Shown here piece by piece: positions 8,274 to 53,973 of a stretch of DNA of 64,000 bases. How positions within the stretch are numbered: the stretch's first letter is position 1; every line of letters starts with the position of its first letter. Source of the stretch: Confluentibacter lentus (GTDB lineage: Bacteria > Bacteroidota > Bacteroidia > Flavobacteriales > Flavobacteriaceae); contig NZ_NIHE01000002.1 in NCBI RefSeq assembly GCF_002806995.1, positions 434,001 through 498,000 on the forward strand, in the 5' to 3' direction. A model generated the notes under the pieces. It was not told the origin of the DNA, ran no database searches, and saw only the letters and a program-made list of their open reading frames with translations. The position numbers and the translations under genes were made by a program.

Positions 8274-9572
8274 ATGATTGAGAGAGCACCAAAAATAGAA
8301 TTAAATGAGCAAGAAGAACTAATTCGTGTTGCTAATGCACTAAACCAAATTTCTTCACAATTTAAAAAAATACAAAAAGAATATTTATACTGGGATAAAA
8401 TTAAGTATTTACAACATTCAGAAAATCTTTGGACAATAACTAAAACATTGAGAAAAATAAATCAAAGAATTATTCTTATTGAAGAATCGCAAAAATCATT
8501 GCGACTGGAATATAACACAAATGATTTTCTACAACAAAAACTCCATTACCTAGACTTCAACTTTGGGGCGGGCTTACAAAAAGAACAACTTTTAACAGAT
8601 TTAGACAAACAAGATTATCTAAAAAATGCTTTGATGGAAGAATCTATTTTTTCATCAATGATTGAAGGAGCAACGACTACGCGAGTGAAAGCAAAAGATA
8701 TGCTCCGAAAAAACAAAAAGCCCAAAAATAAGAGTGAGCAAATGATATTGAATAATTATAAAACCATTCAATATATAAGCGAGCATCAAGATGAAGCTAT
8801 TTCAAAAGAAAAACTATATGACATTCATAGATTGGTTACTGAAAACACTTTGGAAGATGAAAATATTGGTGTTTTTAGAGATAACAATGAAGTAAATGTT
8901 GTGAATGAAATTACCGGAGAAATTGTTCATACGCCACCAAATTTTGAAGAACTGGAGGAATTGATGAGCTCCTTTTGTCATTTTTTCAATAACAACCCAA
9001 AAGAAGATTTTATTCACCCCATTGTAAAAGGCAGCATTTTACACTTTTTAATAGGTTATATACACCCATTTGTTGATGGTAATGGGAGAACAGCGCGAGC
9101 CATATTTTATTGGTATTTACTTAAAAATGGTTATTGGTTAACCGAATATTTATCCATTTCAAGAGTCATTTTAAAAACAAAAACGCAATATGAAAAAGCC
9201 TATTTATATACTGAAATTGACGACATGGATGTCACCTATTTTATCCATTATCAAGTAAAAGTATTACTGCGAGCTTTTGAAGAGCTAAAAACCTATGTTG
9301 CCAAAAAGAAAAAAGAGCAATCAAAACTTTCTAAATACTTAAAACTTGAGAATATAAATGAAAGACAGGCTGTAATTCTACAAAAAATAGAAGAAGACCA
9401 TAATCGGTTTTTTACTGTTAAGGAGATAGAGAATATATTCAGTATTACAAATCAAACAGCAAGAACAGATATTGAAGAATTGGTTTCACGTGGGTTTTTA
9501 AAGAAAATAGCTGTCAATAAAAAAACCTCCAACTATTGGAAAGGAGACAAGTTTGATAATGCCTTTTTATAA
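8274..9572 (+). CDS. Fic family AMP-transferase-like protein with C-terminal winged helix
   Basis: Fic enzymes transfer AMP or other nucleotidyl groups to hydroxyl side chains of target proteins. The active-site loop HPFVDGNGRTARA begins at about residue 264 and has all key residues (His, Asp, Gly-Asn-Gly-Arg). An N-terminal autoinhibitory motif of type S-x-x-x-E-G (SSMIEG) is at about 127-132, which places it in the class with an internal inhibitory helix. Residues 355-430 form a helix-turn-helix-like end (VKEIENIFSITNQTARTDIEEL). The gene stands alone behind twin operator-like repeats, which suggests autoregulation. It converges on the ATL gene with overlapping stops. Confidence 0.92.
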   Translation: MIERAPKIELNEQEELIRVANALNQISSQFKKIQKEYLYWDKIKYLQHSENLWTITKTLRKINQRIILIEESQKSLRLEYNTNDFLQQKLHYLDFNFGAGLQKEQLLTDLDKQDYLKNALMEESIFSSMIEGATTTRVKAKDMLRKNKKPKNKSEQMILNNYKTIQYISEHQDEAISKEKLYDIHRLVTENTLEDENIGVFRDNNEVNVVNEITGEIVHTPPNFEELEELMSSFCHFFNNNPKEDFIHPIVKGSILHFLIGYIHPFVDGNGRTARAIFYWYLLKNGYWLTEYLSISRVILKTKTQYEKAYLYTEIDDMDVTYFIHYQVKVLLRAFEELKTYVAKKKKEQSKLSKYLKLENINERQAVILQKIEEDHNRFFTVKEIENIFSITNQTARTDIEELVSRGFLKKIAVNKKTSNYWKGDKFDNAFL

Positions 9573-51578: not shown

Positions 51579-52319
51579 ATGAATTTAACGCTTAAAATTT
51601 GGAGACAAGAAGACTCAAAATCAAAGGGTCGAATGGTTGATTATAAAGTTACTGAGATTTCAGAACATATGTCTTTTTTAGAAATGATGGATGTTTTGAA
51701 TGAACAACTTGTTAATAAAGGTGAAGATCCAGTTGCTTTTGATCATGATTGTCGTGAAGGTATTTGTGGTATGTGCTCAATGTACATTAATGGTGAAGCA
51801 CATGGCCCAGATAGAGGTGTAACCACTTGCCAATTACACATGCGAATGTTTAAGGATGGTGATACCATAACTATCGAACCGTTTAGGGCGACTGCTTTTC
51901 CAGTCATAAAGGATTTGGTTGTTGATAGAAGTGCCTTTGAGCGCATTCAACAAGCAGGAGGCTATATTTCAGTTAATACATCAGGGAACACCCAAGATGC
52001 TAATTCCATTCCAATTTCTAAACATGCTGCCGATGAAGCGATGGATGCAGCAACCTGTATAGGTTGCGGTGCTTGTGTCGCTACTTGTAAAAATTCTAGT
52101 GCCATGTTATTTGTTGGAGCAAAAGTGTCTCAATATGCGTTGTTGCCGCAAGGACAAGTAGAAGCTGCAGACCGTGTGAGAAACATGGTGGCGCAAATGG
52201 ATTTAGAAGGCTTTGGAAATTGCACAAACACAGGTGCTTGCGAAATTGAGTGCCCTAAAGGCATTTCTTTAGAAAATATTGCTAGAATGAATAGAGAATT
52301 AATGAAGGCTTCTATTTAG
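51579..52319 (+). CDS. sdhB: Succinate dehydrogenase iron-sulfur subunit
   Basis: This 246-residue subunit carries three clusters from FAD to the cytochrome. The [2Fe-2S] site is [15 protein letters not shown] with a later Cys in TTCQLHM. The C-terminal part has [18 protein letters not shown] and [15 protein letters not shown]. The ATG at 51579 (MNLTLKIW) is preferred; the upstream ATG at 51552 falls inside the inverted repeat. A terminator follows. Confidence 0.97.
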
Positions 52320-52347
52320 TATTAGAAACATAATAAATGTAAAAAAG

Positions 52348-52376
52348 AAAGTGCGACTTTATTTAAGTCGCACTTT
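52348..52376 (+). terminator. Intrinsic terminator of sdhCAB
   Basis: AAAGTGCGACTT and AAGTCGCACTTT form a perfect 12-bp stem around a 5-base loop, followed by a short T-rich tract. Confidence 0.85.
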
Positions 52377-52408
52377 TCGTTTGAGACAGTTTTAGTAACC
52401 AATTAAAA

Positions 52409-52510
52409 CTAGAAAAAATTGACTACAATATTAATGGCAATAATAGCAATTACCATAACGATCAAAGAAATCATGATGAACGTATTCAAGAATTTGCTCT
52501 TTTTTTCCAT
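52409..52510 (-). CDS. 33-residue single-helix membrane protein
   Basis: On the minus strand an ATG at 52510 opens a 33-codon frame that ends at TAG (52409-52411). The product starts MEKKSKFLNTF and then has one long hydrophobic stretch rich in Ile/Val/Met, ending VVNFF. The positive N-terminus and single helix fit a small inner-membrane protein with the N-terminus in the cytoplasm. No family is recognised. It lies between the sdh terminator and the tandem repeat units. The coding claim rests on composition only. Confidence 0.5.
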   Translation of the reverse strand: MEKKSKFLNTFIMISLIVMVIAIIAINIVVNFF

Positions 52511-52565
52511 AGATAAATTTATTAGCTAGTCTTTGGGGCTCTCTTGAAATTTAAATTTTTTTTTG

Positions 52566-52687
52566 AAAACCCTGTACCATTACAGTACAGGGGTTTTTTA
52601 AAAAATCCTCTCTCTAAGAATTAATTAATAGCGTTGTAAAACTAAATTTTAAATAGGTGAAATAAAATACGCACTTGTAAGTATTTT
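52566..52687 (-). ncRNA. Tandem non-coding unit A (hairpin plus 24-bp dyad), possible small RNA
   Basis: Unit A holds, in minus-strand order, a 24-bp dyad AAAATACT-N8-GCGTATTTT-like element (52664-52687), an AT-rich promoter-like stretch, a conserved core over 52606-52640, and a hairpin with arms CCCTGTAC / GTACAGGG (52570-52592). It aligns without gaps to unit B at an offset of 152 bp across about 75-80 bp. No reading frame is shared, so it is probably an RNA or a regulatory repeat. The transcribed strand is less certain than in unit B because the T-run is longer on the plus strand. Confidence 0.4.
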
Positions 52688-52727
52688 ATTTTCTTAATAA
52701 AAAGCATTTTTTGATTTAAAAAAGAAA

Positions 52728-52839
52728 GCTCCAGATATATAATCCAGAGCCTTCAATAATTCTCCCTAAGAACTAATTAATAGCTCTGTAAATGTAAATT
52801 ATAGATATGTAATAAAAAATACGTAGTTCTGCGTATTTT
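52728..52839 (-). ncRNA. Tandem non-coding unit B (hairpin plus 24-bp dyad), possible small RNA
   Basis: The dyad AAAATACG-N8-CGTATTTT (52816-52839) is perfect in its 8-bp arms and overlaps the stop codon of the LuxR-type regulator. A core shared with unit A follows. The hairpin at 52728-52750 has two mismatches if read on the plus strand, but on the minus strand these become G-U pairs, giving a full 9-bp stem GCTCTGGAT / ATCTGGAGC followed by TTTCTTTTTT. That favours transcription from the minus strand with an intrinsic terminator. It may be the regulator's 3' UTR or a separate small RNA. Confidence 0.45.
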
Positions 52840-53470
52840 ATAAGAAGTCCTTATTTAAAGACGCCCAAATAGAAAGTGATGTCGGTTTATTATCAAGTTT
52901 AAGTTTGGCAACAATATGACTTCTATGTTTATGCACCGTTTTTATAGAAATACAAAGTTCATCAGCTATGTCTTGGCTTGTCTTATTTTCAGAAATTAGC
53001 TTAAGAATTTTTAACTCAGATTTAGTTAACAAATCTAAACAGTCTGGTTTATTAGACATATTATTGGTTTTTAGATGGGCCGATAATTCTTTACTAAAGT
53101 AAGGCTTATTCTGTAAGGCATTGTTAATACAAATTTCTATTTCTTCAACAGCAAACTCTTTTAAAATGTAACCATATATATCAAGTTCCATTGCCTGATC
53201 GAAGAGTTCTTCTTCTTTGTCAAAGGTTATTAAAATAATTTTTGTTTTAAGATTGTTTTTTTTACAGGCCTCTGCAATTTCCAAACCTGTTTTATGGGGC
53301 ATTCTAATATCTAGAATGGCTATATCTGGTTTATATTTTACTATTAAGCTGTAAGCAGTATTTCCATCTTGTGCACTTCCTATAATGTTGAAGTTTTTAG
53401 AAGTTAAGAAGTCTGTTAAACCTCTAAGCATAAGAGGGTGGTCGTCTGCTATTACTATAGAGATATTCAT
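52838..53470 (-). CDS. Orphan NarL/LuxR-family response regulator
   Basis: This 210-residue regulator has a receiver domain (IADDHPLMLRG, phosphoacceptor Asp54 in AILDIRMPHKTG, Lys in YILKEFAVEE) and a C-terminal LuxR helix-turn-helix (LTKSELKILKLISENKTSQDIADELCISIKTVHKHRSHIVAKL). No kinase gene is next to it. Its stop codon lies in a perfect dyad, and two tandem non-coding units follow, which are candidates for its targets. A retropepsin-like gene lies upstream in the same direction. Confidence 0.93.
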   Translation of the reverse strand: MNISIVIADDHPLMLRGLTDFLTSKNFNIIGSAQDGNTAYSLIVKYKPDIAILDIRMPHKTGLEIAEACKKNNLKTKIILITFDKEEELFDQAMELDIYGYILKEFAVEEIEICINNALQNKPYFSKELSAHLKTNNMSNKPDCLDLLTKSELKILKLISENKTSQDIADELCISIKTVHKHRSHIVAKLKLDNKPTSLSIWASLNKDFL

Positions 53471-53532
53471 TAGTTATAAGAATAGTTTGTTACTATTAAA
53501 CCCAAAAATAAGCCTTTTTTAAAAGCAATGCC

Positions 53533-53973
53533 TTACAATTTTAAATAAAGATGTTTTTTATCATAATCAATGATAGCCTTTCCCTTTTTTAAAATATCTG
53601 CACCAATAATACCGTCAACTGGCTTAGACTTATGATATGTAAGCGCTTCGTTTACATGGGTAAGATTAAACAATATTAAAGCCGTTTTATTGCTACGCCA
53701 TTTTCCGATTTTCACTTTGTTTCTTATGGACATTTTGGTATCCATATTAACAGCTCCAGCTCCAGCAGCCTTAATTTCAGAATCTTCTACATCCAATTTA
53801 AATGTCTCAATGGCTTCAAATCTCAAACAAGAACTAGAAGCTCCTGTATCTAAAATGAACAATCCTTTGCGCCCGTTAATGGTTGCCTTAATTTCAAAAT
53901 GATTCGTTTTAGTTAAATGAAGCTTAACTTTAGTATAGTTTTTTTCAAAAAGAAATTTTTCAAGTGATTGCAT
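53533..53973 (-). CDS. Retropepsin-like single-domain aspartic protease
   Basis: This 146-residue protein has the active-site motif FILDTGASSSCL (catalytic Asp42) after a GRKG turn, and the later flap/hydrophobic region DGIIGADILKKGKAIIDY typical of aspartyl-protease-family proteins that act as dimers. No signal peptide or membrane helix is seen, so it should be cytoplasmic. The substrate is unknown. It is upstream of the LuxR-type regulator by about 60 bp. Confidence 0.85.
   Translation of the reverse strand: MQSLEKFLFEKNYTKVKLHLTKTNHFEIKATINGRKGLFILDTGASSSCLRFEAIETFKLDVEDSEIKAAGAGAVNMDTKMSIRNKVKIGKWRSNKTALILFNLTHVNEALTYHKSKPVDGIIGADILKKGKAIIDYDKKHLYLKL

What the first reader, a model, noticed from the sequence alone, without database searches (positions are those of the whole stretch)
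52566..52839. Two tandem non-coding units with 24-bp dyads and hairpins next to an orphan LuxR-type regulator
Two units align without gaps at an offset of 152 bp over about 75-80 bp. Each has a 24-bp dyad (AAAATACG-N8-CGTATTTT in unit B; a close variant in A), a shared AT-rich core and a distinct hairpin. In unit B, two mismatches on the plus strand become G-U pairs on the minus strand and a T-run follows, which is the pattern expected of an RNA transcribed from the minus strand. The hairpin sequences differ between units while the dyad spacing is preserved, so the structure rather than the sequence seems to be kept. The dyad of unit B overlaps the stop codon of the regulator. A plausible reading is a pair of small RNAs or 3'-UTR elements controlled by this regulator.
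Basis: partly seen in the sequence, partly recalled or inferred. Interest (0 to 1): 0.62.

Follow-up and report, generated by a model that had tools for sequence, protein, structure and literature searches.

The report
Regulator-driven small RNA genes in Flavobacteriaceae
Next to a bacterial regulator gene sit two copies of a unit that looks like a switchable promoter followed by a very short RNA, and the same RNA start recurs behind other, different regulators in many relatives, which suggests a family of small regulatory RNAs that I did not find described.

Summary
On the minus strand each unit looks like a promoter: a dyad at -55..-32 (an activator position), a TAnnTTTA box at -12..-5, and a conserved RNA 5' end, GCUAUUAAU, at the predicted +1. 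Unit B then has a hairpin and a terminator: a predicted 67-nt free small RNA. Unit A has the same start but little T-run and most likely leads into an overlooked 33-aa membrane peptide (52409-52510, minus). The order regulator, units (mostly 1-3, up to 9), peptide recurs in Flavobacteriaceae. Of 299 family genomes 45 have a regulator orthologue of at least 300 bits; 44 of these carry the RNA just downstream. The same RNA start also has other operators: TACTCAA-W-TTGAGTA behind a PAS-LuxR protein (27 of 29; the other two loci are cut) and without the peptide, TACC-N8-GGTA, and TTACGG-N4-CCGTAA behind a probable kinase/regulator pair. Geometry and RNA start stay fixed while operator and neighbouring regulator change together. 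No Rfam family reaches its cut-off; eight literature searches found no description. Transcription, binding and targets are not shown; a target scan of 685 genes was negative. New variant of a known kind: sibling small RNAs under regulators, here one RNA start behind several regulators.

The parts
52838..53470 (-). LuxR/NarL-type response regulator (receiver + GerE HTH), 210 aa; predicted activator
   Evidence: Pfam Response_reg 87 bits and GerE 48 bits; matches of at least 300 bits in 45 of 299 family genomes
52816..52839 (-). Unit B operator dyad AAAATACG-N8-CGTATTTT, -55..-32, centre -43.5
   Evidence: at this register with 13/16 or more matches in 104 of 142 instances (4 of the 104 are classed as TACC type)
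52789..52796 (-). Unit B -7 box TACATTTA at -12..-5 (flavobacterial sigma-A consensus TAnnTTTG)
   Evidence: position and consensus from PMC9723704 section 15 part 1; in the 104 aligned instances T at -12 in 80%, A at -11 and T at -8,-7 in 100%, T at -6 in 99%, A at -5 in 92%
52718..52784 (-). Predicted small RNA B, 67 nt, +1 = 52784; GCUAUUAAU 5' end, hairpin SL1 (52757-52775), terminator hairpin SL2 (52724-52754), U run 52718-52723
   Evidence: fold z -4.1; model R1 E 6.4e-16 (this copy is in the model's training set); GCTATTAAT in 193 of 205 units
52664..52687 (-). Unit A operator dyad AAAATACT-N8-CGTATTTT, -55..-32
52637..52644 (-). Unit A -7 box TAGTTTTA at -12..-5
52566..52632 (-). Unit A RNA 5' region, +1 = 52632: conserved core 52609-52632, hairpin 52566-52597 followed by TTTTC and then A's on the minus strand; likely leader (122 nt) of the membrane peptide, possibly partly terminated
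   Evidence: model R1 E 3.8e-11 (in the training set); T-run statistics
52409..52510 (-). Overlooked 33-aa single-TM peptide ORF MEKKSKFLNTFIMISLIVMVIAIIAINIVVNFF
   Evidence: such an ORF in 83 of 94 regulator loci (L094 doubtful), against 8 of 94 on the opposite strand and 3 of 94 shuffled; with the [IVLMAF]N[IVLF] tail 82, 0 and 0; codon-position differences 432:188:739 over 63 non-independent pairs; no Pfam match
52343..52380 (.). Hairpin with U run on the minus strand and TTTT on the plus strand: probable terminator for the peptide mRNA (minus) and for sdhB (plus)
   Evidence: fold z -6.6 on the minus strand

Best explanation
The finding is a regulator-output module. The response regulator at 52838-53470, when activated, is predicted to bind each 24-bp dyad as a dimer, centred 43.5 bp upstream of a start site, and to switch on two promoters in which the dyad lies where a -33 element would be (class II activation). 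Promoter B makes a 67-nt non-coding RNA: an unpaired, nearly invariant 5' end GCUAUUAAU, a small hairpin with a purine-rich loop, and an intrinsic terminator. Promoter A makes an RNA with the same 5' part that runs on into a 33-aa membrane peptide. The free RNA most likely acts in trans, by base pairing through its 5' end and/or loop or by binding an RNA-binding protein, so that the regulator has two outputs: an RNA that changes other genes' expression, and a membrane peptide. In relatives the same RNA start carries at least three further operator types, so several signals may converge on one RNA activity. Shown by sequence: units, geometry, conservation, operator-regulator pairing, fold, coding pattern of the peptide. 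Inferred: transcription, activation by the neighbouring regulator, trans action. Unknown: targets and signal.
For: (1) Anchored on the core (whose own conservation there is by construction, 5 mismatches or fewer), 104 of 142 distinct instances carry the dyad at exactly -55..-32, the linker -29..-13 is weakly conserved (0.9 bits at most per position), and TAnnTTT[AG] sits at -12..-5, the published place of the flavobacterial sigma-A box (PMC9723704), so the core begins at the predicted +1. (2) Operator type goes with neighbour: CG dyad, P0001-type regulator within 400 bp upstream on the same strand in 83 of 100, PAS-LuxR in 0; TACTCAA dyad, PAS-LuxR in 27 of 29 (the other two loci are cut off), P0001 type in 0. 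Centre base at -43 in 28 of 29 TACTCAA units; about -41.5, by hand, for the two TTACGG units. (3) Regulator matches of 300 bits or more in 45 of 299 genomes, 44 of them with an R1 match within 350 bp downstream on the same strand (read off by hand). (4) Units found by dyad and box: GC[TC][AG]TTA at +1 or +2 in 205 of 261, GCTATTAAT in 193 of these. (5) TACTCAA units have no membrane-peptide ORF within 360 bp (0 of 29) whereas 79 of 80 CG loci do, so the RNA head is kept without the peptide. (6) The SL1 region of 86 divergent variants folds better than shuffles on average (mean z -1.1; linker control +0.07), with joint arm changes such as CAGUUCUU/GAGAAUUG and AUUGAUUUUU/GAGAAUCAAU. (7) Longest T run 5 or more in 51 of 78 non-last units.
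Against: No transcript was seen by any tool here. Target search negative: duplex energies against 685 start regions of the own genome (about a quarter of it) were no better than with shuffled RNAs. On alignment A1 the covariation score of SL1 does not exceed shuffles (0.080 against 0.078; 185 of 500 as high), because the core hardly varies there; it exceeds slid registers only. Of the 86 divergent variants only 26% are individually in the lowest 5% of shuffles. 56 of 261 dyad-box units lack the GCTATTA start. T runs: 27 of 78 non-last units have none of 5; 24 of 61 last and 9 of 18 single units do, so the free-RNA and leader groups overlap. CG units without the regulator within 1.5 kb: 11, of which 4 (L012, L022, L060, L131) lie in loci with ample upstream sequence. 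TACC type: a regulator within 400 bp upstream in 1 of 6. Seven of 142 instances have none of these operators by the class rule; two of them, in L052, are CG dyads shifted by a base or decayed.
Confidence: 0.8

Rival explanations
1. Cis-only: the units are duplicated promoters and 5' leaders of the membrane peptide gene. The core acts in cis on the leader (translation or RNA stability); unit B is a decaying duplicate whose short RNA has no job.
For: Three distant orthologues (55-56% identity; L234, L235, L238) have a dyad and box directly in front of a peptide ORF without the core, so the leader arrangement may be the older one (no tree was made); 23 of 94 loci have a single unit.
Against: The same core occurs behind the PAS-LuxR gene with no such peptide in 29 of 29, 23 of 29 facing a convergent Mur-ligase-like gene, and behind a probable kinase/regulator pair. 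Unit numbers rise to nine. The start is more conserved than a useless transcript should be.
Confidence: 0.12
2. 3'-UTR or attenuator elements of the regulator mRNA: the dyad works as an RNA hairpin/terminator of the regulator transcript, not as an operator.
For: The dyad overlaps the regulator stop codon, and in many loci the regulator ends 53-60 bp before +1.
Against: Second and later units have the same dyad far from the stop codon; other copies have different dyads at the same place; the dyad is fixed relative to the -7 box, 27 bp to the box end in 223 of 261 units.
Confidence: 0.04
3. The conserved core is a DNA element (a second protein site or an initially-transcribed-sequence signal for RNA polymerase), not an RNA function.
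For: The conservation begins at the predicted +1 and is strongest in the first 9 bases; formal covariation on A1 is not above shuffles.
Against: Many divergent units keep a hairpin after the 9-mer despite loop insertions and arm changes, which a DNA site would hardly need.
Confidence: 0.06

Closest known systems
csRNAs of Streptococcus (CiaR-dependent small RNAs), PMC3091779 (abstract part and passages seen)
   Same: Several related short RNAs; predicted from a response-regulator site at set spacing to a -10 region, then a terminator; two to six per genome; a short stretch found in virtually all members; two in tandem in S. pneumoniae (PMC4211561 passages).
   Different: Other phylum; one regulator (CiaR) for all copies and variable genomic location. 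Here the RNA lies directly behind its presumed regulator gene, and at least four operator types go with the same RNA start. The shared stretch here is the very 5' end. Sequences were not compared.
FopS family (paralogous sRNAs of Bacteroides thetaiotaomicron), PMC11697453 (abstract and passages seen)
   Same: Same phylum; about 65-70 nt; 14 members with a conserved 5' region and diverse sequence further on; act by pairing near start codons.
   Different: FopS genes are intergenic (9), antisense (4) or 3'-UTR-derived (1), have canonical sigma promoters, respond to bile salts through an unknown regulator, and bind RbpB. No regulator-adjacent layout or peptide in the passages I saw. I had no FopS sequence to compare.
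Rfp18 of Flavobacterium psychrophilum, PMC9723704 (abstract, section 15 part 1 and passages seen)
   Same: Small RNA in the same family Flavobacteriaceae, conserved beyond the species.
   Different: Has at least three stem-loops (targets pair with the third) and affects metalloprotease mRNAs. Unit B has two hairpins.
Qrr, OmrA/B (table of PMC4211561, passages seen) and LhrC (recalled)
   Same: Multi-copy sibling sRNAs; OmrA/B in tandem.
   Different: Other phyla, regulators and sequences (recalled); not compared by sequence.

Membership tests
Any Rfam 15 family | match at the curated gathering score | tested here: not met
   26 matches up to E 10 in 51900-53600, all below gathering
Response-regulator-controlled sibling sRNAs (csRNA-like kind) | regulator operator at activating distance from a promoter box in an intergenic region | tested here: met
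   (sequence geometry and neighbour pairing; binding not shown)
Response-regulator-controlled sibling sRNAs (csRNA-like kind) | promoter followed by an intrinsic terminator, no conserved ORF | tested here: met
   unit B. Unit A does not meet it: weak T run and an ORF downstream
Response-regulator-controlled sibling sRNAs (csRNA-like kind) | two or more related copies per genome | tested here: met
   two in the own genome; nine dyads in one locus, L209
Response-regulator-controlled sibling sRNAs (csRNA-like kind) | detected transcript, loss in a regulator mutant | not testable with these tools
   no RNA data available
FopS | FopS R1' seed, RbpB binding, Bacteroides hosts | tested here: inconclusive
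   only distribution tested: 3 of 296 class genomes match R1, two of them Flavobacteriaceae (one the own genome) and one weak; seed sequence and RbpB not tested
Rfp18 | at least three stem-loops | tested here: not met
   two hairpins in unit B; the third stem-loop is named in PMC9723704

The most novel reading that the evidence does not exclude
A plug-in RNA output: in Flavobacteriaceae one short RNA with a fixed 5' end has been placed under at least four operator types, three of them directly behind distinct regulators, at nearly the same geometry, so that different signals converge on one post-transcriptional activity. At one locus the same RNA head also forms the leader of a membrane peptide mRNA (a dual-function RNA and its non-coding twin), which would show a small RNA family born by duplicating a promoter-leader unit.
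Probability: 0.5. Interest if true: 0.78.

Novelty: new variant of a known kind. Interest (0 to 1): 0.64.

Why it matters
Flavobacteriaceae are called understudied in PMC9723704, and few of their small RNAs are described. This gives a candidate family with a sharp sequence signature, predicted 5' ends, predicted regulators and a conserved peptide partner, matched in 85 of 299 family genomes at E 1e-5 or better (106 at 0.01). It is a ready test case for how separate signalling systems come to share one RNA, and for how a non-coding RNA may arise from a leader by tandem duplication.

Tried and rejected
Rfam search: nothing at gathering. RNAalifold on the whole alignment A1 gave no pairs, as the terminators differ in length and align poorly; model R1 is therefore sequence only. 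Ungapped count on 52 of 97 distinct 28-mers (those at least 18/28 like the consensus): paired 0.736 at the true register against 0.545-0.648 when slid, but cells with both sides changed 17 against up to 21, so not decisive. The count of structure pairs on A1: see evidence against. Target prediction with three RNA segments against 685 start regions: negative. Further operator copies in the own genome: 40 sites at 2 mismatches or fewer against 30 for the reversed control pattern, so no clear wider regulon. Core pattern in the own genome with up to 3 mismatches: only the two known copies. Literature searches that found no description of this RNA: only in the open-licence PubMed Central library. 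What counts leave out: instances closer than 90 or 110 bases to a locus end, and duplicates; units without a recognisable dyad and box; regulator loci with less than 350 bp downstream, under 150 bits, or duplicate; 29 of the 69 near-consensus 36-mers were not folded. Most loci were fetched through the core or the regulator, so frequencies among them are not frequencies in nature.

Full report
What is there. Two units on the minus strand lie between the response regulator gene (52838-53470) and the end of the sdh genes. They repeat over 81 bp at 79% identity, offset 152. On the minus strand unit B folds far better than shuffles (-22.1 kcal/mol, z -4.1), with two hairpins and a terminal U run; the plus strand is weaker. 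No Rfam family reaches its gathering score.

The anatomy. Aligned on this core, 142 distinct instances show a fixed plan: a dyad at -55..-32 in 104 (13/16 matches or more), a weakly conserved linker, TAnnTTT[AG] at -12..-5, then the core. The sigma-A box of F. psychrophilum, TAnnTTTG, lies at -12..-5 (PMC9723704 section 15 part 1), so the core begins at the predicted start site. By operator the 142 are 100 CG, 29 TACTCAA, 6 TACC and 7 other. In a search keyed on dyad and box rather than on the core, 205 of 261 units have GC[TC][AG]TTA at +1 or +2, and 193 of these read GCTATTAAT. The loci had been fetched mainly through core or regulator, so this is not fully independent.

The RNA. After the 9-base 5' end comes hairpin SL1 (UAGUUCUU-AGG-GAGAAUUA in unit B). 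In alignment A1 94.9% of cells pair, against 42-70% for slid registers, but the covariation score is no higher than in shuffles. In 86 more divergent variants the region folds better than shuffles on average (mean z -1.1, 26% of them in the lowest 5%; linker control +0.07, none), and arms change together in several, for example CAGUUCUU/GAGAAUUG, AUUGAUUUUU/GAGAAUCAAU and UCAAUUUU/GAAAUUGA. Then comes a terminator hairpin of variable sequence.

The locus. Downstream of the last unit lies an ORF of about 33 aa with one hydrophobic span and ends such as INILVNFF. It was found in 83 of 94 regulator loci (L094 doubtful), against 8 of 94 on the opposite strand and 3 of 94 after shuffling; with the tail motif 82, 0 and 0. 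Codon-position differences are 432:188:739, as in a coding gene. In the window it is 52409-52510. In three more distant orthologues (L234, L235, L238) the dyad and box stand directly in front of such an ORF without the core. Dyads before the peptide number 0 in 3, 1 in 23, 2 in 55, 3 in 9, 4 in 2, 6 in 1 and 9 in 1 of 94 loci. Non-last units have longer T runs (mean 5.6; 5 or more in 51 of 78) than last units (mean 4.3; 24 of 61) or single ones (mean 4.7; 9 of 18). This fits free RNAs in front and a leader behind, but the groups overlap.

Who drives it. Of 299 family genomes (own included), 106 match model R1 at E 0.01, 85 at 1e-5, and 150 have a regulator match at 1e-30. Of 45 with a regulator match of 300 bits or more, 44 have an R1 match within 350 bp downstream on the same strand; the exception, G236, has a dyad, a box and GCTGTTAAT. 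In the class sample 3 of 296 match, two of them Flavobacteriaceae. Other copies of the core carry other operators. The TACTCAA-W-TTGAGTA type (29; centre base -43 in 28) lies behind a PAS_3-GerE protein in 27, faces a Mur-ligase-like gene in 23, and has the membrane peptide in none. The TACC-N8-GGTA type (6) has a regulator within 400 bp upstream in one. In G009 two copies lie about 182-184 bp behind the second gene of probable TPR-kinase/regulator pairs, with a TTACGG-N4-CCGTAA dyad centred near -41.5; the Pfam receiver and ATPase matches there are below the curated cut-offs. CG operators have the P0001 type within 400 bp upstream in 83 of 100 and never the PAS-LuxR type; TACTCAA operators the reverse. 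I read this as several regulators each driving its own copy of one RNA.

Function. The nearly invariant unpaired 5' end and the loop are the likely contact sites. A scan of 685 start regions (about a quarter of the own genome) gave no excess of complementarity over shuffled RNAs, so targets, or a protein partner, remain unknown. By analogy FopS RNAs of Bacteroides (65-70 nt, conserved 5' region) repress susC-type mRNAs at the start codon (PMC11697453, passages), and csRNAs are response-regulator-driven siblings (PMC3091779, passages). Membership in FopS could not be tested by sequence.

Verdict. The feature is real, conserved and most likely a small RNA family with an unusual arrangement. Transcription and regulation are predictions from comparative geometry; the effect is unknown.

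Noticed in passing
   Followed up: partly
L213:1440-1760 and around 8500-8720: Two paralogous probable kinase/regulator pairs, each followed by a standard copy of the RNA with a TTACGG-N4-CCGTAA dyad near -41.5; before the copy near 1562 lies a diverged unit with the same kind of dyad.
   Followed up: partly
window 53536-53973, minus: Small aspartyl-protease-like protein (Asp_protease_2, 47.8 bits) next to the regulator; relation to the module unknown.
   Followed up: no
L012 (G004) and L022: RNA units with CG dyads but no recognisable regulator within 1.5 kb; G004 and G044 have no regulator match at 1e-30: regulator lost, broken or moved.
   Followed up: no
L196, L197, L198: Variant RNAs with a shortened stretch between the GCTAT start and the hairpin AATTCT-TAGGG-AGAATT (L197 with two extra loop bases); the hairpin arms are kept.
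   Followed up: partly
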